A DNA stretch of 34,080 nucleotides, taken from positions 1 through 34,080 of IMG/VR virus record IMGVR_UViG_3300035034_001911; one strand, written 5' to 3'. The translations under genes were made by a program, and so were the position numbers. The notes under the pieces were generated by a model. The model ran no database searches. It was not told the origin of the DNA and worked only from the letters and a program-made list of their open reading frames with translations. Below, piece after piece: positions 3-24,462 of the stretch. This stretch comes from a virus. Positions within the stretch are counted from its first letter, which is position 1. The number at the start of each line of letters is the position of its first letter.

Positions 3-407
3 GGTAGATTTATTGAAGTAGAAGTAAAGGTATCGAAGTCAGACCTAATGGCCGACTTCAAAAAATATAAGCACGAATATTACCTACACCAATATAAAAC
101 AGGTGAACCCTTAAAAGATTCACGTAGCTGGAAATGGTATAACAATTATGTACCTAAGCAATTTTTCTTTGCGGTGCCTGAAGAGATGTTAGAGTACACA
201 TTAAATGCGGTTGAAGATTTGCCCTACGGAGTTATATGCTACAGACATAGTAATATCTCAAGTTGTAGAAGAGTCAGAATTGAGAAACGTGCAAAAAAAC
301 TTCATGACAAACCTGTACCTACTAATGTGATAGACGATGTACTTTTAAGGATGTCTAGTGAACTTTGTAACTTCCATATAGATAGGGCAAACAAACAATG
401 GACATGA
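3..407 (+). CDS. PD-(D/E)XK nuclease-like protein, 5' end outside window
   Basis: The frame is open from the left edge, so this is the C-terminal 134 residues of a longer protein. An internal ATG at 48 exists but would discard conserved sequence. The first visible residues contain IEVEVKVSKSDL, matching the beta-strand E-x-K motif of PD-(D/E)XK-fold proteins (including MmcB-like repair proteins). It is followed by a KxxKHxYY segment, a strand with FFFAVPEEM and a basic KRAKKLHDKP stretch, also usual in that group. The catalytic Asp would lie upstream and cannot be seen. The last 10 nt overlap the terminase gene, so the two are probably co-translated. A role in DNA processing next to the packaging motor is an inference. 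Family assignment is moderate; activity is unproven. Confidence 0.6.
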   Translation, partial: GRFIEVEVKVSKSDLMADFKKYKHEYYLHQYKTGEPLKDSRSWKWYNNYVPKQFFFAVPEEMLEYTLNAVEDLPYGVICYRHSNISSCRRVRIEKRAKKLHDKPVPTNVIDDVLLRMSSELCNFHIDRANKQWT

Positions 408-1936
408 TACTACCAGAAAATGATGATTTAAAACCTGAGTGGGCTAAAAGAAGTTTGCTAGATTTTATAACATATACAAAACCAGACTATGAAGTTAACT
501 GGCACCATGAATATATATGTAAAAAGTTAGATGAATTTTTAGACCCTAACTCAAAAGTTGAAAGGTTAATCATAGAAGCCCCCCCGCGTTCTGGAAAATC
601 TGAGATAGTTTCAAGAAGATTTCCTGCATACGCATTAGGTAAAAATCCAAAACATGAAATCGTACTAGCTTCATACGCATCACCCTTAGCACAAAGAATG
701 AACAGAGATGTTCAGAGAATAATGGATGATGAGTTATATCATAATGTTTTTCCAAACACACAACTCAACTCTGCCAATGTAGCAAAAAGTTCTAGAGGTA
801 ATTGGATTAGAACTTCTGACTTATTTGAAGTTTGTGGCCACGGTGGTTCGTTTAGGAGTACAGGGGTAAACGGTAGTTTAACTGGTCAAGGTTTAACAAT
901 AGGTATAATTGATGACCCTATAAAAGATTGGAAGGAAGCGACAAGTAAAACTATAAAAGATGGTGTATGGGAATGGTATCAATCAGTTTTCTATACAAGG
1001 CTTAACCCTAAGTTCGGTAAAATAATTGTAATGAATACTAGGTGGGCCGAAGATGACTTAACAGGTAGACTACTAGCCCTAGCAGAAAAAGATGGTGAAG
1101 CTGACCAATGGGAAGTTTTAAGATTTCCGATGATTCAAGAAAAGACTAGGTACACACATCCTGCAGACCCTAGGGAAATAGGTGACTTACTTTGGCCTGA
1201 AAGGTTTAATGCTAAAAAAGTTACAAGTTTTAAAAAGACTATGGGTAGTAGAATTTTTGGAGCTATGTATCAACAAAGACCCGCACCCGATGAAGGTGGG
1301 TTAGTCCATAGGGATTGGTGGCAGTACTATACTAAGGCACCTAGCTTAGAAGATTTTGACTACATAAGTATGTCGTGGGACTTTTCTTTTAAAGGTACCC
1401 AAAATGCAGATTATGTTGTTGGGCAAGTTTGGGGTAGAAAGGGTGCCAAGTATTATCTACTAGATCAAGTACGTGACCAAATGAATTTCTCGTCTACCGT
1501 GATGGCCGTAAAAGCCCTAGCTAGAAAATGGAATACCTACAGAGAAATCGTTGTAGAGGAAAAAGCTAACGGTGCTGCAATTATTGATACACTTAAATCT
1601 GAAATAAGAGGTATCATACCTTATAGTCCTAGAGAGTCTAAGGAAGCTAGGGCTTCCAGTATCTCACCTTTAATTGAGGCAGGAAATATTTTCTTACCTG
1701 ACCCCGACATAGCACCTTGGATAATGGACTACGTAGAAGAATGGGCCGTATTTCCAAACGGTGCTAATGATGACCAAATTGATAGTACGTCCCAAATGCT
1801 TATACGTTTTCAAAAGTCAAAAACTTTTCTTGAGGTACTTAGTTATGAGGAAGAAGCCTTTATTGCTCCCGAAGAAGAAAAGGGCATTTTGGATATGTTT
1901 TGGGGCAACAAGTCACGAGGTGGTCTAGACTTTTAA
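398..1936 (+). CDS. Terminase large subunit (ATPase-nuclease packaging motor)
   Basis: 512 residues, full length for a large terminase. The ATPase domain has Walker A APPRSGKS (residues 61-68), a hydrophobic Walker B strand ending IIDD (166-173) and the coupling motif NTRW (213-216). The C-terminal RNase H-like nuclease domain shows its acidic residues in order: D328 in SMSWDFSF, E387/E388 in VVEEKANG and D458/D459/D462 in ANDDQID. The enzyme pumps DNA through the portal into the prohead and cuts the concatemer. The start overlaps the upstream gene by 10 nt. No small terminase subunit is visible here; it may lie upstream. The sequence resembles the Terminase_6 type seen in many large myoviruses. 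Confidence 0.95.
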   Translation: MDMILPENDDLKPEWAKRSLLDFITYTKPDYEVNWHHEYICKKLDEFLDPNSKVERLIIEAPPRSGKSEIVSRRFPAYALGKNPKHEIVLASYASPLAQRMNRDVQRIMDDELYHNVFPNTQLNSANVAKSSRGNWIRTSDLFEVCGHGGSFRSTGVNGSLTGQGLTIGIIDDPIKDWKEATSKTIKDGVWEWYQSVFYTRLNPKFGKIIVMNTRWAEDDLTGRLLALAEKDGEADQWEVLRFPMIQEKTRYTHPADPREIGDLLWPERFNAKKVTSFKKTMGSRIFGAMYQQRPAPDEGGLVHRDWWQYYTKAPSLEDFDYISMSWDFSFKGTQNADYVVGQVWGRKGAKYYLLDQVRDQMNFSSTVMAVKALARKWNTYREIVVEEKANGAAIIDTLKSEIRGIIPYSPRESKEARASSISPLIEAGNIFLPDPDIAPWIMDYVEEWAVFPNGANDDQIDSTSQMLIRFQKSKTFLEVLSYEEEAFIAPEEEKGILDMFWGNKSRGGLDF

Positions 1937-1996: not shown

Positions 1997-2371
1997 ATGT
2001 TTACCAAAGATACTGAGTACGCAGTGATAGTGGTAGGACAACTTAAAGGACAAACCAAAAAAGAACCAATATCGTTACAAACGATAGTTAAGAAGCACAA
2101 TCTTAAACAGGGTTTTGCAGAACAGGTGTGTAGAAGACTACGCAATGGTGGTTTCATACGCTCAATAAAAGGGCCAGGGGGCGGGTATTATATAACGCAG
2201 CTAGGCTATGATGCTTCACTATGGGAAATCATGTGGGCCGTTGAGACTAGACTAGTTAAAAAAGTAGAAAAACTTCTTCCTCAATCCAAAGATTTATTCT
2301 TTAATTGTGAAAGGAAATTAAAAGAGGTGTATATTAAAGGTTACACATTAGAAAGTGATAGTGTAGCTTAA
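1997..2371 (+). CDS. Rrf2-family winged-helix transcriptional regulator
   Basis: 124 residues, slightly shorter than typical Rrf2/IscR proteins (130-160). The N-terminal winged helix is clear: DTEYAV at the start, PISLQTIVKK (24-33), a recognition-helix region with AEQVCRRLRNGGFIRS (41-56), and the family's wing signature KGPGGGYY (58-65), followed by SLWEIMWAVE (74-83). Rrf2 proteins bind DNA as dimers, often through an Fe-S cluster held by three Cys. Only C45 and C104 are present and there is no Cys triad, so classical cluster sensing looks lost. An AAGGAG site and a sigma70-like promoter precede it. It lies between terminase and the tagged array, an unusual place for such a regulator. It could regulate phage late genes or host Rrf2 targets; neither is shown. 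Confidence 0.88.
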   Translation: MFTKDTEYAVIVVGQLKGQTKKEPISLQTIVKKHNLKQGFAEQVCRRLRNGGFIRSIKGPGGGYYITQLGYDASLWEIMWAVETRLVKKVEKLLPQSKDLFFNCERKLKEVYIKGYTLESDSVA

Positions 2372-2461: not shown

Positions 2462-2701
2462 ATGGGAAAAATTAGAGACTTACTAGACCAATCAGAAAAT
2501 CAAAGAATGGAATTTTACAAAGTTGGTGATAAAGTTCACCAAGTAAACCGTATCCCAGAAGACGGTGGTAATGGTGGTAAGCATCGTAGAGTAATTCACA
2601 ATGCCGATGGTTCTAAAGAAGCTGAAGATTTTATCAGTGCTGAAGAATATGCAAAGCTATCTAAAGGCGAACGTGTAGACGCTAATACCGTAGGTAAATA
2701 A
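2462..2701 (+). CDS. Small capsid-targeted (tagged) protein, unknown function
   Basis: 79 residues, first gene of the tagged array, after a 90-nt gap and an AGGAG site at about 2451. It opens MGKIRDLLDQSE, the shared N-terminal motif. No clean L/I-x-E cleavage site follows at the usual position; RME at 15-17 is a weaker candidate. The body is hydrophilic with a compact, possibly beta-rich middle (KVGDKVHQVNRI) and a Gly/Asn-rich GGNGGKHRR stretch. No known domain is recognised. The next tagged gene follows after 2 nt. Packaging in the prohead is inferred from the tag only. Confidence 0.8.
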   Translation: MGKIRDLLDQSENQRMEFYKVGDKVHQVNRIPEDGGNGGKHRRVIHNADGSKEAEDFISAEEYAKLSKGERVDANTVGK

Positions 2702-2703
2702 TT

Positions 2704-3174
2704 ATGGGAAAATTTTCAGAGTTACTAAAACATATTCAAGAAGATAATGGTAAGACTTCTGAAGACAATGACCATTATCATACCTACGAAGTTAATGACG
2801 AAGGTAATGGTAAGACTATCAAAACTATAGGTGATGTAAACGAACATGTTCACACTATTGAAGAGTTTGATATTCAAATGTCTAAAGATCACGACCATGA
2901 TATTCCAAAGAAAAAACCTAAAGTAAATGAAGAAGAAAATTTCTCCATGAAGATTGTTAAGAACAATGCTATAGGTAAATCAGGACTAGACCTTGCATTT
3001 GCAAGTGCTAAGAAAATGAAGGGTGTCAGTGTACCCGATGATTCAATAGCTATTACACCAAATACCAAACTTAAGGGTGTTTCTAAAATAGAAGACCTCA
3101 AGTTAGGTATGAAAGTTAGTGGTAAATTTAGACAAACCAGTAGAGGTAAAGAAGCTACTGAACTAGAGGTATAG
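2704..3174 (+). CDS. Tagged His-rich internal protein
   Basis: 156 residues. It opens MGKFSELLKHIQE, with an I-x-E site at residues 11-13 where a gp21-like protease could cut. Residues 22-66 carry three evenly spaced H-x-H pairs (H24/H26, H48/H50, H63/H65), two of them in a DHYHTYEV...EHVHTIEEF pattern that resembles short HxH modules in other phage virion proteins and suggests metal binding. The C-terminal part (about 80-156) is a different, basic, probably folded domain ending KGKEATELEV. Spacing is 2 nt from the gene before and 1 nt to the gene after, so it is part of one operon. Confidence 0.82.
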   Translation: MGKFSELLKHIQEDNGKTSEDNDHYHTYEVNDEGNGKTIKTIGDVNEHVHTIEEFDIQMSKDHDHDIPKKKPKVNEEENFSMKIVKNNAIGKSGLDLAFASAKKMKGVSVPDDSIAITPNTKLKGVSKIEDLKLGMKVSGKFRQTSRGKEATELEV

Positions 3175-3175
3175 C

Positions 3176-3379
3176 ATGGGAAAAATAAAAGATTTATTAG
3201 AAGCTGAAATGTCATCTAAAGGTAATCCTAAATTACATAAAAAAGTTATGGATAAACTTAAAAAGCAGAAGGGTAACAGCGATGCTGATTATCACATGGA
3301 TTTAATTAAAGGTATGAACCCTAAGAAATTATCACAGTCGGATGTTGATACCCTTAAAGCATTTGATGATATGTACTAA
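3176..3379 (+). CDS. Small tagged basic protein
   Basis: 67 residues. It begins MGKIKDLLEAE, a close match to the array tag with an L-L-E site at 7-9. The remainder is Lys-rich and probably helical (KLHKKVMDKLKKQKG), with a C-terminal LSQSDVDTLKAFDDMY helix. No known domain is seen. One nucleotide separates it from the preceding stop. After cleavage it would release a basic peptide of about 58 residues, similar in scale to T4 internal peptides; this is inference. Confidence 0.78.
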   Translation: MGKIKDLLEAEMSSKGNPKLHKKVMDKLKKQKGNSDADYHMDLIKGMNPKKLSQSDVDTLKAFDDMY

Positions 3380-3409
3380 GGCTTCAGTGTATCTCAGGTA
3401 GATGCTACT

Positions 3410-3607
3410 ATGGGTAAATACATCGTTATGTTAGAGAAGGTTCTAAAGACCGCTAATAAATATAGAAACGGTAGTAAGTATAGTAGAAGACTTGAAAGTG
3501 ACTACGCAGGAAACGAGGATAAATTAAAAGAGATTGCTAGTGAAATGATGGATGCTACTAATATGGTCGAAGAGTCATTTAAAAAAATTCAAAGTAAAAT
3601 TGGATAA
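3410..3607 (+). CDS. Small tagged-like protein, unknown function
   Basis: 65 residues, starting MGKYIVMLEKVLK. The tag is divergent but keeps M-G-K-aromatic and hydrophobic residues before E9 (M-L-E). The rest looks alpha-helical and charged (YSRRLESDYAGNEDKLKE), without a recognised domain. The ribosome site is weak (AGGTAG about 10 nt upstream), unlike its neighbours. It lies in the same short-gene run, 30 nt after the previous gene and 20 nt before the next. Confidence 0.7.
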   Translation: MGKYIVMLEKVLKTANKYRNGSKYSRRLESDYAGNEDKLKEIASEMMDATNMVEESFKKIQSKIG

Positions 3608-3627
3608 AACAATATTGGAGAAACGAC

Positions 3628-3936
3628 ATGGGAAAAATTAGCGAACTATTAGGTAATAAGAAAACTAAAACAGACGAAGCGGTTAACATAGATAACATTA
3701 TCAAAGAACTTATTGATACAGGTTTTTCAAAAGATAATGAATCTCAAATGAAGGCGGTTCAACTATTAAAAGGTTTGGCTACTTCAGATGACCCAAAATC
3801 AAATGCTTTTATGAAAAAGTTAGATGCTTTTACTTCTGGACTTAAAGCAAATGAAGAAGATGATGATGAAGACGAAGATGATAGTGATGATGATAGTGAT
3901 GATGATAGTGATGATGAAGATGAAGATGATAAATAG
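3628..3936 (+). CDS. Tagged acidic prohead core protein, gp67-like in character
   Basis: 102 residues. It begins MGKISELLGNKK (I-S-E at 4-6), then a helical middle (about 20-72), then an almost purely Asp/Glu/Ser tail (about 76-101) written as a tandem DDSD repeat. This composition resembles T4 gp67, a small prohead core protein with a long acidic C-terminus, though no sequence homology can be claimed from repeats. The encoding DNA contains three near-identical 12-bp units (about 3883-3918), prone to slippage. It has a good ribosome site (GGAG at 3617-3620). A role in scaffold-core assembly or counter-ion handling in the head is inference. Confidence 0.8.
   Translation: MGKISELLGNKKTKTDEAVNIDNIIKELIDTGFSKDNESQMKAVQLLKGLATSDDPKSNAFMKKLDAFTSGLKANEEDDDEDEDDSDDDSDDDSDDEDEDDK
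3883..3918 (+). repeat. Three 12-bp tandem units encoding the acidic DDSD repeat
   Basis: The unit AGTGATGATGAT occurs at 3883, 3895 and, with one final mismatch, 3907. It lies within the acidic tail of the core protein and preserves frame, so copy number can change without disrupting the protein. Confidence 0.85.
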
Positions 3937-3939
3937 TCA

Positions 3940-4191
3940 ATGACTAAAAAAGCTGAACGTAAAAGAAACGCGGTTAAAAAGGCTAAGGAGGAAGTAAAAT
4001 CTTCTAGTCTTAATCGTCCTAGTTACGCAAAGATGTTTTTAGAGTGGCGAGAAAATAGACCCTCTAAATTACTCAAAGAATTAAAAGAAATGGGATATTT
4101 AAAGAATGAAACTAATAGAGATGTACGAAAGGACAAGTCTAGGGAATGTGAAAGGGATGTTTCCAAAGGGAAAAAGAAAACCCCTTCCTAG
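3940..4191 (+). CDS. Small highly basic protein, unknown function
   Basis: 83 residues, about one third Lys/Arg, beginning MTKKAERKRNAVKKAKEE. It lacks the array tag. It starts 4 nt after the stop of the acidic core protein, and the pair may form an acidic-basic partner set (inference). Its last 86 nt overlap the next gene in another frame, and that part of the protein (RDVRKDKSRECERDV...) is low complexity and may be an overprinted tail. No recognised domain; DNA or scaffold binding would fit its charge. Confidence 0.62.
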   Translation: MTKKAERKRNAVKKAKEEVKSSSLNRPSYAKMFLEWRENRPSKLLKELKEMGYLKNETNRDVRKDKSRECERDVSKGKKKTPS

Positions 4192-4600
4192 CACTCAAGA
4201 CATGGACAACCTAAAAGTTTCTACTATGAATCTTACCTCGACAACTCGTGTACTAGCTCAACTACTCTCAAAACTAAATAAAACAAACCCGAGCAAAGAC
4301 CTAACTCAGGCAGTAATTAATACTAGCAGAACTTCAGACGCGGCTAGGGCTTTACTAAAGAAACTAGACACATATAAACACTTTGACTCAATACCTGTAA
4401 AAGATTTTAAAACAAAACTAGAGGGTATGTTTAGAGATGTATTCTCATTCTTAGATGGTGCAGAAAATTACATTACAAAAGCAGATGTATCAAAATCAGG
4501 TCAAGAAAAAAGGATGCTATTTCTAGCAAAACAGGAAGCTAAAGATATTTTAAACGGGGCTAGAATGATTAATGATAGAATCAAAAGGTCAGGACTATAA
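4106..4600 (+). CDS. Putative internal/core protein, helical
   Basis: 164 residues from ATG 4106. The first residues MKLIEMYERTS form a divergent tag-like helix with L-I-E (3-5) and M-Y-E (6-8); the protein at 11276 has a similar M-Y-E. Later starts at 4157 and 4202 are possible because 4106 has only a weak ribosome site and overlaps the previous gene by 86 nt. The body is predicted mostly helical (LTSTTRVLAQLLSKLNK, ARALLKKLDTYKHF, MFRDVFSFLDGAENY). No known family is recognised. Its stop overlaps the next tagged start (TAATG), implying coupling. Confidence 0.72.
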   Translation: MKLIEMYERTSLGNVKGMFPKGKRKPLPSTQDMDNLKVSTMNLTSTTRVLAQLLSKLNKTNPSKDLTQAVINTSRTSDAARALLKKLDTYKHFDSIPVKDFKTKLEGMFRDVFSFLDGAENYITKADVSKSGQEKRMLFLAKQEAKDILNGARMINDRIKRSGL

Positions 4601-5067
4601 TGGGTAAATTTAGAAAACTATTAGATGAAGCTGAAGTAATACTAAAAGGTAAAAACAAAGTTACTAGGGGGGTACCCACAGATAGTAGGGGTAAACCTTT
4701 ATCTATATCAATGCAAAGAATTATGAAGGCTACTAAAGAACTAGAAAAAGCTGACGGTTTTAAACTTAAGACATCTTTAGCAGATGTGGTTATGAAATTA
4801 AAAAAATTCCAAGATGAGGTTAAAAAACTACCTAAAGGTAATAATGGTTATAGTAGTATCCGAACTAAAACTAAAAATAATTTTGAAAAAGCCATTACCT
4901 CTTTGAGTAACATGGTGGTCAATATAAAAAAGAAGGGTCTAAAAGCCGTTGAATCAAATAATAAGGAATTAGAGTTATGGGAAAGTTTAGAGATATCTTG
5001 TCAGACTATAGAGAACTGGTTGAAAAAACAATTACCTTCAAAGGAAGAAAAAAGTTTGGACAAGTAG
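4600..5067 (+). CDS. Tagged internal protein with best T4-like targeting sequence
   Basis: 155 residues starting MGKFRKLLDEAEV. Aligned without gaps to the T4 internal-protein tag MKTYQEFIAE|A it shares M1, an aromatic at 4, hydrophobics at 7-8, E10 and A11, so the cut would fall after E10. The rest is Lys-rich and helical (KKFQDEVKKLPKG, NFEKAITSLSNMVVNIKKKG), like a basic internal protein. ATG overlaps the previous stop, with AGGA 6 nt before it. Its last 91 nt overlap the P-loop gene in another frame, so the C-terminal 30 residues are overprinted. Function is unknown. Confidence 0.8.
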   Translation: MGKFRKLLDEAEVILKGKNKVTRGVPTDSRGKPLSISMQRIMKATKELEKADGFKLKTSLADVVMKLKKFQDEVKKLPKGNNGYSSIRTKTKNNFEKAITSLSNMVVNIKKKGLKAVESNNKELELWESLEISCQTIENWLKKQLPSKEEKSLDK

Positions 5068-5843
5068 TTATAGCTGCGGGTGGTGCAGGTAGTGGCAAGG
5101 GTTTTGCCCTTAGTCAGTTTGTGGGGCTACCAAACGCTAAGACTTTTGATGTAGATGCTTTAAAGTCTAAACTTATAAAATTGGCTGCACTTAAAGGTGA
5201 TAAAGAAATAGCGGGACTTGATTTAAGAAATCCAAAAGATGTTGCTAGACTACACATGATAGTAAAAGAAAAAGGTATAGCAGATAAAGAGGTAAACTCA
5301 TTTCTAGGTTCTGCTAACAAAGACAAACTACCTAATATAATTTTTGATAAAACAGCTAAGTCTAGAGAAGATATAACTAAGACAGTAGATCAAGTAATGG
5401 CCTATGGTTACAAACCTGAAGATATACACCTTGTGTGGGTTTTAACTAACTACAAAGTAGCCTTCAAAAGAAATATCACAAGAAGTAGAGTAGTACCTAG
5501 AGATATATTTTTACAGACACATAAAGGTGCAGCAAGCACTATGAATAAGATTATAAAGGGTGATGTACCATCTAATGTTGATGGTGAAATATATGTTATT
5601 TTGAATAATACAGAAGAGACTAAACCTGTAGTAGATAAGGAAGGTAACATAGTACTTAATACTAAAGGCCAACCAACACCTAAAAATTTCACATTTATAA
5701 AACTTAAGTCAGTTGGTAAACCTATTATTTCAGATAAAGAGGCACTAGAACAGGTAACCGATTGGGTAAACAAAAATGCTCCTAAGTCAGCACTTAAAGA
5801 AAATTACACGGTAGAAATCGGGATAGGTTCATGGGAAGAATAA
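4977..5843 (+). CDS. Tagged P-loop kinase-like protein (zeta-toxin/AAA_33-like)
   Basis: 288 residues. The tag MGKFRDILSDYRELVE (L-V-E at 14-16) is followed by a Rossmann-like strand and Walker A GGAGSGKG (35-42). Other kinase-like marks are FDVDALKSKL (58-66), a Walker-B-like strand NIIFDKT (120-126, D124), the strand HLVWVL, and an Arg cluster KRNITRSRVVPRD (164-176) with H182. This arrangement resembles P-loop small-molecule or polynucleotide kinases of the zeta-toxin/AAA_33 group; the substrate cannot be told. It starts inside the preceding gene with AAGGA about 9 nt upstream. The tag suggests it is packaged and possibly injected to modify a host target early in infection; this is inference. 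A DNA-end or nucleotide kinase acting in the capsid is an alternative. Confidence 0.82.
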   Translation: MGKFRDILSDYRELVEKTITFKGRKKFGQVVIAAGGAGSGKGFALSQFVGLPNAKTFDVDALKSKLIKLAALKGDKEIAGLDLRNPKDVARLHMIVKEKGIADKEVNSFLGSANKDKLPNIIFDKTAKSREDITKTVDQVMAYGYKPEDIHLVWVLTNYKVAFKRNITRSRVVPRDIFLQTHKGAASTMNKIIKGDVPSNVDGEIYVILNNTEETKPVVDKEGNIVLNTKGQPTPKNFTFIKLKSVGKPIISDKEALEQVTDWVNKNAPKSALKENYTVEIGIGSWEE

Positions 5844-6292
5844 GTAGCTTATTAGAAACTATATTTATTCCCAAAGGTAACCTAGGTATACCAAGAAGGA
5901 ATATGCCGCAGGTAGAAGACCAAGACCAAAAAGACTTTTTTTCTTTTATGAAATCAAATGATATAAGCGTTACTAAGAAAAAAGTTAAAGCCAATAAGAT
6001 CAAACCTATTCAAAAAGAAATACGGTCAGATGTAGTGAAGGGCCTGGCTAAGAACGACCCTGAAAAATTAAAAAAGTCACTAATTATATCTAAAGATAAT
6101 TTCCTACTTGATGGTCACCATAGATGGCTAGCACTTCTAAACCAAGACCAAGAGATAACTTTAGATGTTATTGTTCTTGGTACAGGCATGAAGAAACTTT
6201 TAGATGTTGCAAGGAAATATCCTAAGATAGTTTTTAAGGATACAGATAATAAAGTATTTAAAAGTATAGACCCTAAGCTAAAATCTAATTAG
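5831..6292 (+). CDS. Tagged ParB/sulfiredoxin-like domain protein
   Basis: 153 residues. It begins MGRISSLLETIF (L-L-E at 7-9). Residues about 48-118 form a ParB/Srx-type domain: KKKVKANKIKPIQKEI (50-64), then a strand ISKDNFLLDGHHRWLA (86-101) with the family signature DGHHRW (94-99), then LDVIVLG. Such domains bind nucleotides or act as nucleases in some members. Single-domain ParB-like proteins occur in phage virion gene clusters. It overlaps the kinase-like gene by 13 nt and converges with the minus-strand gene at 6285. Tag and place make it a candidate packaged and injected protein. Whether it cuts DNA or hydrolyses NTP is unknown. Confidence 0.85.
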   Translation: MGRISSLLETIFIPKGNLGIPRRNMPQVEDQDQKDFFSFMKSNDISVTKKKVKANKIKPIQKEIRSDVVKGLAKNDPEKLKKSLIISKDNFLLDGHHRWLALLNQDQEITLDVIVLGTGMKKLLDVARKYPKIVFKDTDNKVFKSIDPKLKSN

Positions 6293-7085: not shown

Positions 7086-7373
7086 ATGGAAAAAAAGATT
7101 TACGTAAAGAACTTAAGTTTTGCAACTACTGAAGATGAATTAAAAAATGAATGTAGTCAGTACGGAAGTGTGCTTGATGTACGGATAATCAAAACAACCG
7201 ATGAGAATACTGGACAAAGAAGAAGTAGAGGTTTCGGGTTTGTAACTTTTGAGAATACCAGTGAAGCTGAATCAGCTATTCGTAATTTACATAATGCGAC
7301 ACTACATGATAGAACACTTCATGTTGAAGAAGCTATTGATAAAAGGAACCTAAGTAGGCCTTTAAATTCATAA
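7086..7373 (+). CDS. Single-domain RRM RNA-binding protein
   Basis: 95 residues forming one RNA-recognition motif. RNP2 is IYVKNL (5-10) and RNP1 is RGFGFVTF (48-55), including the aromatic residues that stack on RNA bases; the helix TEDELKNECSQYG (15-27) and closing strand TLHVEEA (77-83) complete the fold. Proteins of this shape are common in eukaryotes and in some bacteria (cyanobacteria, Bdellovibrio-like and others) as cold- or stress-related RNA-binding proteins, and rare in phages. It sits 2 nt after the zinc-ribbon gene. Acquisition from a bacterial host and a role in phage or host mRNA stability are inferences. Domain identity is certain by sight. Confidence 0.93.
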   Translation: MEKKIYVKNLSFATTEDELKNECSQYGSVLDVRIIKTTDENTGQRRSRGFGFVTFENTSEAESAIRNLHNATLHDRTLHVEEAIDKRNLSRPLNS

Positions 7374-7453: not shown

Positions 7454-9130
7454 GTGCGAGTAAATCATATAAAAATTAACCCTAAGTTAAAGTGGGCTAC
7501 GACAAACATACAAGTACCTACCAGTAATCGAGGTGGGGGTGTAGACTTAGACCCTAATATGCCTAGTCCTTCTGAATTAGCGGAAGCTATAAAAAATAGA
7601 ACCTTTGAAGATACCTTTGAACTAGATGACCATAATGTAGCTGCAGCTTATTCGGAGTTGTATACTAATGTTAGTCAAAGTCGTATGGGTATTATTAGAC
7701 AGGTTGAGAGAATGTCACAGTACTACCTAGTAGATACTATTGTTTCTCAGTTTATAGAAGATGCCTTAACACCTGAGATATCTACGAATGATATTCTATC
7801 TGTTAGTTATGAAGAAGAAAATGAAGAAAATTCACTTGTGCAAAAAGAGATTGAGGCATTGGATAAACAACTAGACTTTGACCAATTAGCTTTAGATATT
7901 GCACCTGACTTAGTTAGAAATGGTGAGTACACTTTAAAGAATGATTTTGGAAAAGAGGGTAGTAAAAAAGGTATTAAACATATTAGGGATATTGTCGAAC
8001 AAGGTAACATAGTAGCTATTACACAAGATGGTAAAATTAAGGGTTACTTAGAGATGAACGATAGGGCTAATAAGCTAATCGTGTACCCACCTAAACATTT
8101 TACAAAATTCGTATTAGCAGGTGACAGGGTTAGAGTTAATCTTAAAAAACATGTACCCGAAGAATACTTAAAAACAGAAGAAGCAAAAAAACTTATGGCC
8201 ATGCTTCCACGTTATGTACGTGTTGGTAAGTCAATGATATTTCCTGTATTACCAAAAATAAAAGAATTGGAACTATTAGAAAAATTGGTACCTGCTACAA
8301 AACTTGCTAAATTATCAGGTGGGTCTATTGTAGGAATGCAAGTACCAGAAGCATTTGATATTGGTGATGCACTAAAAGCTACTAAGAGAGTAGAAGGTTT
8401 AGTAAATAATAAAATAGCTATTGACGATAGTATTGGTGAAGTAACAGTACAAGCTATTATGTCTTCTGCAGGTAGAGTAAAAGTTATTCCTGTATTTGGG
8501 GACAAAGGTAACTTATCAAAATTAGATTATAAATCAGATGAACCAGATGACCTATTAGGTTCCGTACAAGAAACAAGACAAGTTATATGTGACTCTATTG
8601 GGATACCCTATGAACTATTATTCCGTTCAGACTCAGGAAGTAAATCTGAGACAATAAAGAGATATGCAAAATACTTAAGAAGACTTAAAAATATTCAAAG
8701 GGCTATCACAAAGGGTATCACACAAATAGTTTATAACCACCTAGTAAACAAGGGTATAGACTTTGAACCTGATAAAGTAAAAGTTGAATTTAGAAATAAA
8801 TTAGTTGAAATTGATAACCTAGATAAACTTGAACACATGGATGTAACAGTTTCACTATTAGGAAATCTTAAAACTTTTGTTGAAGACCTTTTAGCAGAAG
8901 AATCACCTGTAAGAAAACACATAAACATCGAAGCATACAAAGATTACCTTAAATCCCAGTTAGAAACTATAGGCCTAGGTGATTTAATACAGGAAGAAGA
9001 AAACGAATTTGGCAATGATAACGATGATGATACAGATGATTTTATCTCACGTTCAGATAGTGGTGAACCTGTAGAAGACCCAGACGATAACCCTTTGGAT
9101 ACAGAAGAACCTGAAGATGGTGAACAGTAG
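7454..9130 (+). CDS. Portal protein, T4 gp20-like
   Basis: 558 residues, close to T4 gp20 (524). It forms the dodecameric ring at the capsid vertex through which DNA passes and on which the prohead core starts. The order (before protease, scaffold and capsid) and features of the T4-like portal family support the call: an N-terminal region with SRMGIIRQVERMSQYYLVDTI, VYPPKHFTKFVLAG, and a C-terminal PYELLFRSDSGSKSETIKRYAKYLRRL segment with a long helix. The last 50 residues are very acidic (NDDDTDDF...EDPDDNPLDTEEPEDGEQ). It starts with GTG after an AGTAGGG site. The stop TAG shares its G with the GTG of the next gene. Confidence 0.88.
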   Translation: MRVNHIKINPKLKWATTNIQVPTSNRGGGVDLDPNMPSPSELAEAIKNRTFEDTFELDDHNVAAAYSELYTNVSQSRMGIIRQVERMSQYYLVDTIVSQFIEDALTPEISTNDILSVSYEEENEENSLVQKEIEALDKQLDFDQLALDIAPDLVRNGEYTLKNDFGKEGSKKGIKHIRDIVEQGNIVAITQDGKIKGYLEMNDRANKLIVYPPKHFTKFVLAGDRVRVNLKKHVPEEYLKTEEAKKLMAMLPRYVRVGKSMIFPVLPKIKELELLEKLVPATKLAKLSGGSIVGMQVPEAFDIGDALKATKRVEGLVNNKIAIDDSIGEVTVQAIMSSAGRVKVIPVFGDKGNLSKLDYKSDEPDDLLGSVQETRQVICDSIGIPYELLFRSDSGSKSETIKRYAKYLRRLKNIQRAITKGITQIVYNHLVNKGIDFEPDKVKVEFRNKLVEIDNLDKLEHMDVTVSLLGNLKTFVEDLLAEESPVRKHINIEAYKDYLKSQLETIGLGDLIQEEENEFGNDNDDDTDDFISRSDSGEPVEDPDDNPLDTEEPEDGEQ

Positions 9131-10484: not shown

Positions 10485-11276
10485 ATGGGCAAGTTTAAAG
10501 ATTTACTAGAACAGATAAATCAAATGGCACCTGAAGCAATAGCTAAGGCTTTTAAAGATAGGATAGAACTATTTGATTTTGATGGTATCACAGTGGAAGA
10601 TGTAGATATTGATGCTGAAGGTGGTATCACAGTAACTTTTGTAGACTCGGAAGGTGATGAACTATCTATACTCTTCGCATACGAAAATGATGAAGGTGTA
10701 ACAGCTACTATCCTAGATGGTGAAGATGACGAGGACTTTATTGTTATTGACTTAGACCCTTTAGACCCACCTACAATTGTACAAGGTTTCATGGGTATTA
10801 AATACCCTAAACTGGACAACCTAAACTGGATGAATAAGTCAGCACTTGCTTCTATATTTGTTTCAGGTGATATGGGTAATGATGATGACCCCGATTTAGA
10901 TGGTCACTTAACTCAAAAAGATATTGAAAAAAGGCAAATGCCAAAACAGTTCGGATACTTTAAAGCCGTTGAAGAGTTAGATGGTGATGTTTTAGTTGAA
11001 GAAGGGGAAGACCTAGAAATCAATGAACGTAAGGTAACTGTAGTTCGTGGTGGTAAAAAAGTACGTATACCTGTAGTTAGAAAAATACGTAGGAAAAGAT
11101 TAACGGCTACCCAAAAGTCAGGTATCAGAAAAGCGGTACGTAAAAGAAAACAGAAGGCAGGGGCTATCTCACGTAAGAGAAAAAAGTCTTTAGCACTTAG
11201 AAAAAGGTCAGGCCTTAAAAAGGGTAAGTTCACTAAATTCCAAAAAACTCAAGGTACATCGAATAGGAAAAGATAA
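10485..11276 (+). CDS. Tagged core protein with histone-like basic C-terminus
   Basis: 263 residues. It starts MGKFKDLLEQINQ with an L-L-E site at 7-9. Residues 30-150 are acidic and probably beta-rich (DFDGITVEDVDIDAEGG). Residues about 183-263 are extremely basic (KIRRKRLTATQ, RKAVRKRKQKAG, SRKRKKSLALRKR), like a histone tail. Further possible protease sites such as L-V-E at 170-172 could free the basic part during maturation. It starts 2 nt after the ATPase gene and overlaps the next start by 1 nt. Prohead core component that becomes DNA-condensing internal protein is my reading; similar basic proteins occur in other phage head clusters. Confidence 0.85.
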   Translation: MGKFKDLLEQINQMAPEAIAKAFKDRIELFDFDGITVEDVDIDAEGGITVTFVDSEGDELSILFAYENDEGVTATILDGEDDEDFIVIDLDPLDPPTIVQGFMGIKYPKLDNLNWMNKSALASIFVSGDMGNDDDPDLDGHLTQKDIEKRQMPKQFGYFKAVEELDGDVLVEEGEDLEINERKVTVVRGGKKVRIPVVRKIRRKRLTATQKSGIRKAVRKRKQKAGAISRKRKKSLALRKRSGLKKGKFTKFQKTQGTSNRKR

Positions 11277-11557
11277 TGGCTAGAAAATTTAAAAAACTAA
11301 TGCTTATGTATGAAGCAAAAGAAATTGTCACAGTACTGGTAGATAAAAATAAGTATCAGCTACTTGGTGATGGTGGTATATCCAAATTAATGTCAAAAGA
11401 AGAAATGTCAAAACTCCTAGATAGTATAGAAATAAGTTCGCTAGATACAAAAAGTAATGCTACAAAAGACATACTAAAAGAGGTTGATACTACCAGAGAT
11501 AACCAAGTTGATCTAGAAGTTGATAGTAAATTTATAAAGAAATTAGGATTGAGGTAA
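11276..11557 (+). CDS. Small tagged prohead core-like protein
   Basis: 93 residues starting MARKFKKLMLMYEAKE. The tag is a variant with M-Y-E at 11-13 then Ala, resembling the start of the 4106 gene (E-M-Y-E). The remainder is charged and helical (SKLMSKEEMSKLLDSIEIS), with acidic and basic residues mixed. No known domain. Its position between portal and protease is that of the small core genes 67 and 68 in T4, so a core role is likely by synteny only. ATG overlaps the previous stop (TAATG). Confidence 0.72.
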   Translation: MARKFKKLMLMYEAKEIVTVLVDKNKYQLLGDGGISKLMSKEEMSKLLDSIEISSLDTKSNATKDILKEVDTTRDNQVDLEVDSKFIKKLGLR

Positions 11558-12975: not shown

Positions 12976-14367
12976 ATGCAATTTAAACAAGATATTTTTG
13001 AACCTGACCTACACTTTACACTGGAAGAAGCTAGTGGTGAAGAACAAGGCCAGTCAATCTTAGCGAAAGTTAGAGGTTGTTTCTTTGTACCAGATGGTAT
13101 CTCAAGAAATAAAAGATTCTATCCTAAGAGTCTTTGGGAAAAAGCACTTAATAAAAAAGACATAAAAGAAAAGTTAGCTTCTAAAAGAATGTTCGGTACT
13201 ATCGGACATGACCAAGTAATAAATGACAATGCAATATTAGAAGGTAAAATTTCACATATAGTAACCAATTTAAGTATAGACAGTAATGGACAAGGAATTG
13301 GAGAAGCACTCATTCTCGATACTCCCGCAGGTCGCGGTCTAAACACACTTCTTAAAGCGGGTAGTAAACTATTTGTTTCAAGTAGGGCACTAGGTAAATT
13401 CAAGGGTGAAAAAAACGGATTACCTGTAGTAGATGAAAATTCATATCAGCTACAGACATTTGATTTTGTAATTGACCCTGGCTTCCTAGAGGCACACCCA
13501 AACATTAAGGAGGCTTTAGAACCAGAACTTGCATCGGATTTTGACGAAAAACAAATAACAAACCATAATAATACAAACATAGGAGATGGTGAGATGAATG
13601 ATAAAGAACTCGCACAGCACATTATTGATGAAAACACAAAAGTAAAGAATGATTTAACTACTGCAGTTGAAGAAAACAGTACTCTTAAAGATGAATTAGC
13701 AGTTGTTAAAAATGACAATGAAAATCTTCAAGAACAAGTAACTGAATTTGATACTGTAAAAGAAGAACTTGAAGGTTATAAATCTTTAGGTACTGTAGAA
13801 GAAATCAAAGAAGCTACTGAAGCTAAAGAAAAAGCTGAAAAAGAATTAGCTGAATTTAAAGCTATCGATACAGATGTAGAAAACTTATCTGCACAAGATG
13901 TTATTGAAGCAATTGATAAAGCTCATGAGAGATTATCAGAATATAAAAAAGTTGGAAGTCCTGAAGGGATTACAGATACTCTAGAAAAACTAGGTGAATT
14001 TAAGGACGCAGTTCTTGAGTACGGAAACTTAGAAGAACTAGAAGAAATCTATAACTTTTCTGCAGAACTTATTTCTAAAGAAAAAGAAGCTAAGAAAAAC
14101 GAGGCAATCGTAGAACTAGCTGAAGAACTTGGTGTATCAAAAGAAAAAATCACTAGAGTATATGACAAGCTATCTGTAGAAGAAATCAAAGAAGCATTCG
14201 GTGGTCTTAAAGAAGATTCAGAGAAGCAAGACATCAAAGAAACTTTTTCAAAAGATAAAGTTGATCTAGATGAAAATAATGGTGAAGACGAAGATGAAAC
14301 ATTTGAGTTTGAATCAGACAAACCGTTAACTGAAAGGTTAATGCAAGGTTTTAATAAGAGAAAATAA
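12976..14367 (+). CDS. Prohead protease-scaffold fusion (gp21/gp22-like)
   Basis: 463 residues. The N-terminal half (1 to about 185) is a T4 gp21-type prohead serine protease: RNKRFYPKSLWEKAL (44-58), catalytic His in TIGHDQ (H78), catalytic Ser in KLFVSSRALG (S135/S136) and FDFVIDPGF (162-170). T4 gp21 has its His and Ser at similar places (85 and 140). The C-terminal half (about 207-463) is a Lys/Glu-rich coiled coil (LKDELAVVKNDNENLQEQV) with an acidic end, typical of the internal scaffold gp22. The protease cuts core proteins after L/I-x-E and then itself. Upstream AGAAGG serves the ATG. A nested start at M207 may yield scaffold alone. Confidence 0.93.
   Translation: MQFKQDIFEPDLHFTLEEASGEEQGQSILAKVRGCFFVPDGISRNKRFYPKSLWEKALNKKDIKEKLASKRMFGTIGHDQVINDNAILEGKISHIVTNLSIDSNGQGIGEALILDTPAGRGLNTLLKAGSKLFVSSRALGKFKGEKNGLPVVDENSYQLQTFDFVIDPGFLEAHPNIKEALEPELASDFDEKQITNHNNTNIGDGEMNDKELAQHIIDENTKVKNDLTTAVEENSTLKDELAVVKNDNENLQEQVTEFDTVKEELEGYKSLGTVEEIKEATEAKEKAEKELAEFKAIDTDVENLSAQDVIEAIDKAHERLSEYKKVGSPEGITDTLEKLGEFKDAVLEYGNLEELEEIYNFSAELISKEKEAKKNEAIVELAEELGVSKEKITRVYDKLSVEEIKEAFGGLKEDSEKQDIKETFSKDKVDLDENNGEDEDETFEFESDKPLTERLMQGFNKRK
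13594..14367 (+). CDS. Nested in-frame scaffold protein (internal start)
   Basis: ATG 13594 is codon 207 of the protease-scaffold gene, in frame, and preceded by a textbook AGGAG (13581-13585) with 8 nt spacing. It lies exactly at the border between protease and coiled-coil halves. Translation from it gives a 257-residue scaffold (MNDKELAQHIIDENTK...) without protease. This is the arrangement of lambda C/Nu3 and related phages, giving much scaffold and little protease from one message. Evidence is ribosome site plus domain border; the product itself has not been observed. Confidence 0.75.
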   Translation: MNDKELAQHIIDENTKVKNDLTTAVEENSTLKDELAVVKNDNENLQEQVTEFDTVKEELEGYKSLGTVEEIKEATEAKEKAEKELAEFKAIDTDVENLSAQDVIEAIDKAHERLSEYKKVGSPEGITDTLEKLGEFKDAVLEYGNLEELEEIYNFSAELISKEKEAKKNEAIVELAEELGVSKEKITRVYDKLSVEEIKEAFGGLKEDSEKQDIKETFSKDKVDLDENNGEDEDETFEFESDKPLTERLMQGFNKRK

Positions 14368-14450: not shown

Positions 14451-15875
14451 ATGGATTTTACACAAAATTACCTAGAGGCTAAGAATAGTCAACTAGTAGA
14501 GTGGATGAAAAAAAACCACAAAGATCAAATTAAAGCACTAGAGAACTCACCTCTAGCTGAAACTCGTTCAATTACGGAAAATGATATTGCTAACCTAGCT
14601 ATTCAGTACCGTAACTTTGAGCTTTACAAAAGCATGGCAGAAAACAATGGTTCACTAGGTAACCTAGGACAACTACCAAAAGTTGCATTATCAGTTGTTA
14701 CAGCAACTATGGGTGCATCGATTTTACCAATGATTTCTTCGGTTCAACCAATTGAAGAACAAAGAGGTATCATCTACTTTAGACAAATTGTTTCAAGAAA
14801 TACTAGAGGAAGTCAAACTGCAGGTGATGTAGTTGTTGACCCTAGAACAGGTAGCGTAACACCTTCAGGATATGCTTCTAACGAACTACTTGCTGAAGAA
14901 GCGGTTGCAGCTACAGTTGATGCTCAACTTCAGTATACGTTTACATTAGCAAATGCTCCTATCCTTCCACAGTTCTTAAAAATCACTACTGATATTGCAG
15001 CTTCTCAAATTGCTGTAGATCAAGGTGCAATTAGTGCTGATAAGAATATTGGTATTCTTTATGGTAACGGAATTAGCGGTCAAGTAGACTACACTACAGG
15101 TGAAGTAACTATTGATTTTTCAGCTAACCCTGGCGTTGGTCAAAAAGTATTTGCTTCTTACCAACAAGACCTTGAGCGTGGTGAAGACTTACAAGCTATC
15201 TCTTCATTCATGGACTCAAAAGATATCCAAGCTAAAGTATATGCACTTAAGCAATCACAAGGTATGTTACAGTCGTTTACTCTTCAAAAAAGATTCGGTC
15301 AATCAATGCAAGAGCAACTTGCTTCTGACCTAGTTATGGAAGTAAACAGAGAAGTTGGTGGTGACGCTGTAAGACAACTTGATGCAAATGCTCAAGGTGT
15401 AACTACTTTCTCAAGAACAGCACAATCAGGTGTTTCTTTTGCAGAACACAAGTTAGAGTACAAAGATAAATTATACGAAGCTGAAAACGTAATGCTTTCA
15501 AATGCAGGTAGGGGTGCAATCAGTACTCTAGTTGTTGGTAGAAAACATGCTGCTTTCCTAAGAGGATTGCCTGGCTTTGAACTTCTTAATGATGGTAACA
15601 CTCTAGGTTCTCACTTATTTGGTAGACTAGATGGTATCACTATTATTAGAGTACCTGAGACTGCACTACTTGGTGAAGATAGAGGTATCGGACTTTATAA
15701 GGGTCAAAATCCTTATGAGGCAGCGGTAGTTTATTCTCCATTCATGCCAATGGCAGTTACAGACATGCTTCCAGAAGGGAAAAACCCTCTAGCAGGAATG
15801 CGTGGTGCTGCACAGATGAGTGGTGTAGATGTTGTTGTACCTCAGTACGCAACTAACATTAACTTAACTGCATAA
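14451..15875 (+). CDS. Major capsid protein, T4 gp23-like
   Basis: 474 residues, similar to gp23-type capsid proteins (about 470-520). Typical elements are MGASILPMISSVQPIEEQRGI (near 87-107), a central E-loop-rich region, and a C-terminal domain with ISTLVVGRKHAAFL and PYEAAVVYSPFMPM. The N-terminal region carries likely protease sites: L-A-E|T at 35-37 and I-T-E|N at 41-43, so a propeptide of about 37-43 residues is probably removed on maturation, shorter than the 65 of T4. Codon use is richer in favoured codons than its neighbours, as expected for the most abundant protein. GAGG lies before the ATG, and a strong terminator follows. Confidence 0.93.
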   Translation: MDFTQNYLEAKNSQLVEWMKKNHKDQIKALENSPLAETRSITENDIANLAIQYRNFELYKSMAENNGSLGNLGQLPKVALSVVTATMGASILPMISSVQPIEEQRGIIYFRQIVSRNTRGSQTAGDVVVDPRTGSVTPSGYASNELLAEEAVAATVDAQLQYTFTLANAPILPQFLKITTDIAASQIAVDQGAISADKNIGILYGNGISGQVDYTTGEVTIDFSANPGVGQKVFASYQQDLERGEDLQAISSFMDSKDIQAKVYALKQSQGMLQSFTLQKRFGQSMQEQLASDLVMEVNREVGGDAVRQLDANAQGVTTFSRTAQSGVSFAEHKLEYKDKLYEAENVMLSNAGRGAISTLVVGRKHAAFLRGLPGFELLNDGNTLGSHLFGRLDGITIIRVPETALLGEDRGIGLYKGQNPYEAAVVYSPFMPMAVTDMLPEGKNPLAGMRGAAQMSGVDVVVPQYATNINLTA

Positions 15876-24234: not shown

Positions 24235-24462
24235 ATGGGAAGAATAAGTAAATTATTGGAAGCTAAAGTCGTTATGACAATAAAGCCCACTAAGCATAAC
24301 GTAACCACACTCAAGAAACGTGGTATCTTTTCAGATGACTCTCGGTACTTCTTTGACATGTATGACAAGGTACTTAGCGGTAAAGAATATGAAAAAGAAA
24401 TAAAAGATAAATGGGATAATGCTATTGCAGATGAGTTCTCAAAAGCAGGATTAAAATTTTAG
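24235..24462 (+). CDS. Tagged small protein encoded before the tape measure
   Basis: 75 residues starting MGRISKLLEAKV, nearly identical in its first nine residues to the ParB-like gene (MGRISSLLE), with an L-L-E site at 7-9 then Ala. The body (TTLKKRGIFSDDSRYFFDMYDKVLSGKEYEKEIKDKWDNAI) is helical and charged, without known domain. It lies 3 nt after the small ORF, inside the tail module and 18 kb from the main tagged array. It may be a displaced internal protein, or the tag could have another meaning here. Confidence 0.8.
   Translation: MGRISKLLEAKVVMTIKPTKHNVTTLKKRGIFSDDSRYFFDMYDKVLSGKEYEKEIKDKWDNAIADEFSKAGLKF

What the first reader, a model, noticed from the sequence alone, without database searches (positions are those of the whole stretch)
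2462..6292. Array of unrelated proteins sharing a T4-like capsid-targeting N-terminus
At least seven consecutive genes, plus 10485, 11276 (variant) and 24235, begin M-G-K/R-[F/I/Y]-x-x-L-L-x-E or a close variant, while the rest of each protein differs. The clearest case, MGKFRKLLDE|A (4600), aligns without gaps to the T4 internal-protein tag MKTYQEFIAE|A, which directs cargo into the prohead core and is cut by gp21. A gp21-type protease is encoded at 12976. Inference: this is a cargo-loading system delivering ten or more different proteins into the capsid and perhaps into the host.
Basis: partly seen in the sequence, partly recalled or inferred. Interest (0 to 1): 0.9.

Follow-up and report, generated by a model that had tools for sequence, protein, structure and literature searches.

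The report
Phage cargo tags for capsid loading
This phage puts the same short address label on at least ten otherwise unrelated proteins, most likely so that they are packed inside its head and carried into the next bacterium, and very different phages of the same head type use their own versions of the label.

Summary
Ten genes (eight of the ten ORFs in 2462-6292, plus 10485 and 24235) encode unrelated proteins that begin M-G-[KR]-[FIY]-x-x-[LIM]-L; 1 of 3242 genes in the related genomes does. The likeness is in amino acids, not DNA: it stops after codon 9, is absent upstream, and codon choice inside it is random.

The T4 reading is strongly supported by comparison. The phage has T4-type head genes (portal, S77 prohead protease, Gp23 capsid). 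About a dozen divergent relatives carry their own version of the tag on roughly 4-19 mostly unrelated proteins, with hydrophobic residues at 4, 7 and usually 8 in most of them. Positions 4 and 7 drive capsid targeting in T4. A hydrophobic-x-Glu site usually follows. Orthologous cargoes carry the tag type of their own genome. In Yersinia phage YerA41, 4 of 5 tagged proteins are labelled structural. Tagged cargo here includes a zeta-toxin-like kinase, whose T4-like RB43 homolog has a T4-type tag, and a ParB-like protein.

Not shown: presence in this phage's virions, cleavage, injection. Only 4600 has T4's exact site spacing. Verdict: a T4 internal-protein system in a distant lineage; new variant of a known kind.

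The parts
2462..2701 (+). tagged cargo 1, 79 aa, MGKIRDLLDQSEN; no family match
2704..3174 (+). tagged cargo 2, 156 aa, MGKFSELLKHIQE|D; His/Asp-rich; no family match
3176..3379 (+). tagged cargo 3, 67 aa, MGKIKDLLE|A
3410..3607 (+). tagged cargo 4, 65 aa, MGKYIVMLE|K (most divergent tag)
3628..3936 (+). tagged cargo 5, 102 aa, MGKISELLG; homolog with another tag in G011 (MNKANEILSLVKE|A, 59% over 74 aa)
4106..4600 (+). ORF inside the array without the strict tag (MKLIEMYERTS, resembles the MKLI-type tag of other lineages); overlaps ORF 3940-4191
4600..5067 (+). tagged cargo 6, 155 aa, MGKFRKLLDE|A; same length and site spacing as T4 MKTYQEFIAE|A
4977..5843 (+). tagged cargo 7, 288 aa, zeta-toxin-like kinase (PF06414), phrog_5268; MGKFRDILSDYRELVE|K; homolog in RB43 begins MKSFKDFVSLDE|A
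5831..6292 (+). tagged cargo 8, 153 aa, MGRISSLLE|T; ParB-like fold inferred from the LDGHHRW motif; tblastn relatives include a DarB-like antirestriction protein
10485..11276 (+). tagged conserved head-cluster protein, 263 aa, MGKFKDLLE|Q; related proteins in other lineages carry their own tags; basic C-terminus (phrog_1053); putative prohead-core component
11276..11557 (+). possible shifted variant tag, 93 aa, MARKFKKLMLMYE|A
   Evidence: read by eye
24235..24462 (+). tagged cargo 10, 75 aa, MGRISKLLE|A, lying among tail genes
12976..14367 (+). prohead protease (Peptidase_S77, T4 gp21 family) with a long coiled-coil-like, possibly scaffold, C-terminal part; LEE|ASGE before the protease domain
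14451..15875 (+). major capsid protein, Gp23 family (PF07068)
14640..14642 (+). codon for capsid Glu64 (MAE|NNGS), invariant in alignment A1; predicted maturation site, at nearly the residue number of the T4 gp23 site (65-residue propeptide)
7454..9130 (+). portal protein, T4 gp20 type (PF07230)
398..1936 (+). terminase large subunit; tagged genes also flank it in YerA41 and G003

Best explanation
The shared N-terminus is a capsid-targeting sequence of the T4 kind. The first 9-13 residues form a short amphipathic helix with hydrophobic residues at 4, 7 and 8 (and 11 in most relatives). It docks each cargo on the prohead core, whose scaffold is probably the long C-terminal part of the protease protein or a neighbouring core protein. 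The S77 protease then cuts most cargoes after a hydrophobic-x-Glu site just behind the tag, releasing them into the head, from which they are injected with the DNA to act early against the host. Shown here: the tag, its peptide-level conservation, the T4-type protease, capsid and portal, and matching lineage-specific tags in relatives. Inferred: docking partner, cleavage in this phage, virion location, injection.
For: Head type: S77, Gp23, Portal_T4. Tag on 10 unrelated proteins, conserved as peptide, not DNA. Relatives have their own tags: G003 19, G011 16, G016 10, G008 8, Rhizobium phage TM30 9, YerA41 4-5 and others, at a threshold set to pass at most 2 of 767 control genes. Positions outside the search profile also match: residue 11 hydrophobic 0.82 vs 0.38 in untagged genes, Glu at 12/13 0.28/0.27 vs 0.07, hydrophobic-x-Glu in 0.81 vs 0.28 (residue shuffles of the same tails 0.495 +/- 0.042). 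Hydrophobic moment 0.497 vs 0.308 untagged and 0.317 shuffled. Hydrophobic 4 and 7 are the T4 CTS targeting positions (PMC9026906). Homologous cargo, different tag: zeta-like kinase vs RB43, 3628 vs G011, 10485 and the zinc-ribbon cargo across lineages; in most of ten pairs the tag is closer to its own genome's tags than to the ortholog's. YerA41: 4 of 5 tagged proteins labelled structural vs 36 of 208 others, Fisher 0.005; its paper reports LC-MS/MS of particles. Genomes whose capsid site ends C-E hold the C-E tags: 11 of 969 genes vs 0 of 1345, Fisher 7e-5 (2 of 1630 and 6e-4 if RB43 is added).
Against: No virion or N-terminal data exist for this phage. Only 4600 has the exact T4 site at residues 8-10; 2462 and 3628 lack a good site within 20 residues. 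No tag cluster was found in Thermus phiLo, E. coli EP_H11 or Vibrio Va2, which have this head type. The scaffold was not identified by homology. The helix in the one model is low confidence at residues 1-11. YerA41 'structural protein' labels may not all come from mass spectrometry, and the tagged genes lie beside head genes.
Confidence: 0.87

Rival explanations
1. The tag is a docking peptide, but for another partner: the portal, tail, membrane or an intracellular phage compartment. The proteins then need not be inside the head.
For: An amphipathic helix fits many partners. One tagged gene (24235) lies among tail genes. The scaffold partner is not identified.
Against: Presence with the S77/Gp23 head type across lineages; match to the T4 CTS positions and site; tagged YerA41 proteins labelled structural; homologous kinase in T4-like RB43 with a T4-type tag.
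Confidence: 0.08
2. The shared start is a translation or expression signal: the first codons are selected for mRNA structure, ribosome access or stability, not for protein targeting.
For: It begins at the start codon; Lys/Arg at codon 3 is common in well-expressed genes (general knowledge).
Against: Codon choice inside the tag is as random as genome usage and upstream DNA is not shared. The conserved features are hydrophobic spacing and a downstream Glu. The abundant structural genes of the window lack the tag.
Confidence: 0.03
3. The array is a recent duplication family or a copied gene start, and the tag has no function of its own.
For: Most tagged genes are adjacent; a few tagged genes within one relative are paralogs.
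Against: No paralogy among the window cargoes beyond residue 9; the similarity is only at the amino-acid level; the same architecture with different letters recurs in many lineages.
Confidence: 0.02

Closest known systems
Phage T4 internal proteins IPI, IPII, IPIII and Alt with their capsid targeting sequence (CTS), cleaved by gp21
   Same: Short N-terminal tag shared by otherwise unrelated proteins (PMC3012670, PMC9026906, PMC12373910); hydrophobic positions 4 and 7; L/I-x-E site; gp21-family protease and Gp23 capsid; same length and site in 4600 (MGKFRKLLDE|A vs T4 MKTYQEFIAE|A, read from the T4 genome).
   Different: Different letters (MGK[FI]xxLL against MKTYQEFIAE); site usually not at residue 10; eight tagged genes in one block next to the terminase; T4 has three IPs plus Alt; protease carries a long, possibly scaffold, tail.
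Phage P1 DarB N-terminal packaging signal (PMC9024508)
   Same: An N-terminal stretch directs a protein to be injected into the capsid; the first 30 residues carry a reporter in.
   Different: No shared consensus among P1 Dar proteins was found; P1 is not known to have a separate T4-type core.
PhiKZ / SPN3US inner head proteins with propeptides cut by a gp21-like protease (PMC10052503, PMC5694885)
   Same: gp21-like protease cuts head proteins after a short x-x-E motif.
   Different: Propeptides are mostly over 100 residues; no short shared tag.
Polyvalent proteins of phages and conjugative elements (PMC5512222)
   Same: DdrB-like ParB and zeta-toxin-like kinase domains predicted to be delivered with the DNA, as in cargoes 5831 and 4977.
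   Different: There the domains are often fused in giant proteins; here they are separate small proteins, each with a tag.

Membership tests
T4-type CTS / internal-protein system | Short N-terminal peptide shared by proteins unrelated elsewhere | tested here: met
T4-type CTS / internal-protein system | Hydrophobic residues at positions 4 and 7, the T4 targeting determinants | tested here: met
   10 of 10 window tags; T4 determinants from PMC9026906
T4-type CTS / internal-protein system | L/I-x-E cleavage site ending the tag (T4 residues 8-10) | tested here: inconclusive
   Exact spacing only in 4600; hydrophobic-x-Glu within residue 20 in 8 of 10; enriched over shuffles across lineages
T4-type CTS / internal-protein system | gp21-family (S77) prohead protease in the same genome | tested here: met
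   PF03420, E 2.5e-12, above cut-off
T4-type CTS / internal-protein system | Gp23-type capsid with an N-terminal maturation site | tested here: met
   PF07068; conserved x-x-E at residue 64 across relatives. The site is predicted, not observed.
T4-type CTS / internal-protein system | gp22-like core scaffold that the tags bind | tested here: inconclusive
   No gp22 match; long C-terminal part on the protease protein; 10485 family is a candidate core protein
T4-type CTS / internal-protein system | Proteins are inside mature heads and injected | not testable with these tools
   Indirect only: YerA41 tagged proteins labelled structural
P1 DarB-type packaging signal | Same packaging signal family as DarB residues 1-30 | not tested
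   No DarB sequence was compared; PMC9024508 reports no Dar consensus

The most novel reading that the evidence does not exclude
Capsid cargo loading by an N-terminal address peptide is a general trait of the Gp23/S77 phage supergroup. Each lineage uses its own private tag, co-evolved with its scaffold and protease site, and genes gained from elsewhere become capsid cargo by acquiring the local tag. The cargoes form a preloaded counter-defence arsenal. This would include the anti-CBASS enzyme Acb1, which carries lineage-type tags in Cobetia phage Carin-5 and possibly RB43, Vibrio phage 150E35-1 and even T4 itself (MMEFKDFSTG).
Probability: 0.5. Interest if true: 0.8.

Novelty: new variant of a known kind. 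Interest (0 to 1): 0.62.

Why it matters
T4 internal proteins are the best-studied case of a phage addressing many unrelated proteins to its capsid by a short tag. If the same rule, with different letters, holds across the wider supergroup, injected proteins can be read straight from sequence: find each genome's repeated N-terminus and list its bearers. That would nominate many small unknown proteins as candidate early counter-defence factors and give sets of tags that might be orthogonal for loading proteins into phage heads. It also makes testable whether known anti-defence proteins such as Acb1 are pre-packed rather than made after infection.

Tried and rejected
Near-identical DNA in known phages: none. 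Close relatives in IMG/VR by the AAA protein, kinase or capsid alone: none; the capsid alignment found 21. Cultured relatives Va2 and EP_H11 and phiLo gave no tag cluster; Vibrio 150E35-1 gave none de novo, but a looser scan found four N-termini ending in C-E. Considered and rejected: recent duplication, a DNA element, a translation signal, chance. A general regular expression for all lineages was a poor detector because tag length varies. Structure model of 10485 had mean pLDDT 57 and residues 1-11 below 50, so the N-terminal helix is only weakly supported. Lists for RB43, Molly, G005 and Carin-5 contain likely false members (e.g. a long enzyme in RB43, low scores in Molly); L047:3896 is a capsid fragment. 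No paper on lineage-specific tags outside T4-like phages was found in three searches of the open library; subscription papers are not held.
Full report
WHAT THE WINDOW IS. The window is a 34,080-base virus record holding a myovirus head and tail cluster: terminase 398, portal 7454 (Portal_T4), protease 12976 (Peptidase_S77, E 2.5e-12), capsid 14451 (Gp23, E 2.3e-10), sheath, tube and baseplate genes (sheath and tube read from sequence and relatives). No known phage is close in DNA. By capsid protein its nearest named relatives are Rhizobium phages such as TM30 (40%), then Acinetobacter, Vibrio, E. coli, Thermus, Cobetia, Yersinia and Maribacter phages.

THE OBSERVATION. Ten ORFs begin MG[KR][FIY]xx[LIM]L: 2462, 2704, 3176, 3410, 3628, 4600, 4977, 5831, 10485 and 24235. 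In the stretch 2462-6292 they are eight of ten ORFs; the exceptions are the overlapping 3940 and 4106. A near-identical pattern occurs in 0 of 441 control N-termini and 1 of 3242 genes outside the window. De novo clustering recovers the ten against a shuffled maximum degree of 5. Nucleotide identity is 0.63 in codons 2-9 and falls to 0.31-0.35 on both sides; identical residues use the same codon as often as random draws from the genome's usage (0.49 vs 0.45). This excludes a copied DNA element or a recent duplication and points to selection on the peptide.

RELATIVES HAVE THE SAME THING IN OTHER LETTERS. The capsid alignment brought in 21 uncultured contigs. Clustering N-termini genome by genome, with no prior pattern, gave: G003 MS[KR]AKxLL, G011 MS[KR]A[RK]xIL, G008 MSRASxIL, G016 MSLAGNIIRI, G010 M[SN][KR]AKxLLxxCE, G009/G004/G006/G005 M[KRAN]LIxEL, Rhizobium phage TM30 MS[RK]AxxLL; Maribacter Molly MxTxxIKS[LM]IES, YerA41 MSRISxLNxKFEA, Acinetobacter Ab1 M[ST]TRIGKILEINES, RB43 MKSFxEF (cluster strength in YerA41, RB43 and Ab1 is only at or slightly above the shuffled maximum, so there the case rests on the length of the shared motif and on position). 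Profiles set to pass at most 2 of 767 control genes give 3-19 members per genome; most members are unrelated to each other.

THE TAG LOOKS LIKE A T4 CTS IN DETAIL. T4 IPII and IPIII begin MKTYQEFIAEA and IPI MKTFKEFTST (read from the T4 genome). In T4, the first ten residues are required, residues 4 and 7 matter most for targeting and 8 and 10 for processing, and gp21 cuts after L/I-x-E (PMC9026906). In the window tags, positions 4, 7 and 8 are hydrophobic in 10 of 10; in most lineages 4 and 7 are hydrophobic in nearly all, Molly and Ab1 being shifted. Residues 10-16 were not used in the profiles and so are an independent check: residue 11 is hydrophobic in 82% (38% in untagged genes), Glu at 12 or 13 in 28% and 27% (7%), and a hydrophobic-x-Glu lies in residues 7-20 of 81% (28% untagged; 49.5 +/- 4.2% after shuffling). 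The helical hydrophobic moment is 0.497 against 0.308 in untagged and 0.317 in shuffled tags.

THE CUTTING SITE. Capsid Glu64 (SMAE|NNGS) is invariant in alignment A1 and sits at almost the residue number of T4 gp23 processing (65-residue propeptide). Relatives have FCE, LCE, VNE, LME, ILE there (G009, G004 and G005 have MVK|E, i.e. V-K-E shifted by one). Genomes whose capsid site ends C-E hold the C-E tags: 11 of 969 genes, against 0 of 1345 elsewhere (Fisher 7e-5), or 2 of 1630 if RB43 is counted (6e-4). Vibrio 150E35-1 and G010 are the clearest cases. In the window 4600 has exactly the T4 arrangement (LDE|A at residues 8-10), others have LLE|A, LLE|T, LVE|K or IQE|D, and 2462 and 3628 have no good site. 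Cleavage is therefore likely for most but not shown.

TAG FOLLOWS GENOME, BODY FOLLOWS ANCESTRY. The kinase 4977 is 39-42% identical to proteins of T4-like RB43 and Phynn; there the starts are MKSFKDFVSLDE|A and MKSFLKLAEEQKQLDE|A, here MGKFRDILSDYRELVE|K, and the bodies align from just after the Glu. Cargo 3628 matches G011 (MNKANEILSLVKE|A, 59% over 74 aa). The 10485 family occurs with MSKANKII, MSRADELV and MKLIKELN. A zinc-ribbon cargo occurs in at least five genomes with their own tags. In most of ten such pairs the tag scores closer to its own genome's other tags than to its ortholog's tag.

INDEPENDENT VIRION EVIDENCE. YerA41 has the same head type (S77). Five of its genes, lying on both sides of its terminase, begin MSRISxLNxKFEA or a close variant (205c, 206c, 208c, 209c, 210c). 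Four of the five are labelled 'structural protein' in GenBank, against 36 of 208 other CDS (Fisher 0.005). The YerA41 paper reports LC-MS/MS of purified particles with 63 phage proteins (PMC7354516). The peptide table could not be read, so the link from label to mass spectrum is inferred.

CARGO. In the window: a zeta-toxin-like kinase (PF06414, E 7.5e-5), and a protein with a ParB-like DGHHR motif whose tblastn relatives include a DarB-like antirestriction protein. Both domain types are predicted to be delivered with the DNA in polyvalent proteins (PMC5512222). Among relatives' tagged proteins: Acb1 (anti-CBASS), AAA ATPases, a leucine-rich repeat protein, an RNA-ligase-family match (phrog_755; 57B/Acb1 homologs are often annotated 'RNA ligase', so it may be the same Acb1 protein); most match nothing. 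[quoted passage not shown]

VERDICT. The principle (unrelated proteins sharing only a CTS) is known from T4, and a wider role for CTS in T4-like phages has been proposed. What is new is the extent: private versions of the tag across a wide supergroup, with cargo exchange between tag types. Hence 'new variant of a known kind'.

Noticed in passing
L130:11953-12411 (T4 57B), L116:1457-2080 (RB43), L094:16128-16613 (Carin-5), L066:5598-6071 (Vibrio 150E35-1), L091:40557-41054 (YerA41_084): The anti-CBASS enzyme Acb1 or its relatives begin with stretches like the tags of their own phages (T4 MMEFKDFSTG beside ipI; RB43 MKSFLEVAKP; Carin-5 MSKADELNKQLETG; Vibrio MYSASKILDICE; YerA41 MTSRIDIVNKLFA, labelled structural protein). 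Acb1 may be capsid cargo.
   Followed up: partly
window 7086-7373: A single RNA-recognition-motif protein (PF00076, E 1.2e-20) inside the head gene cluster, unusual for a phage.
   Followed up: no
window 1997-2371: An Rrf2-family transcription regulator (PF02082, E 1.2e-15) directly before the tag array.
   Followed up: no
window 9130-10482: AAA ATPase with an N-terminal domain matching phrog_2859, the same large family that matches the ParB-like cargo 5831; untagged here, but AAA relatives in G003 and G014 are tagged.
   Followed up: partly
L033:3584-6430 (G003): A 948-aa tagged protein joins regions similar to the window's AAA protein and to 10485; residues 110-410 resemble a stretch in that genome's terminase, probably a shared intein (one tagged protein matches Hint and homing-endonuclease models).
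   Followed up: no
L042:5076-5651 and L037:3720-4295: A conserved head-region protein (SWIM-type zinc finger in Vibrio annotation) is tagged in two lineages but untagged in most others, as if recruited as cargo.
   Followed up: no
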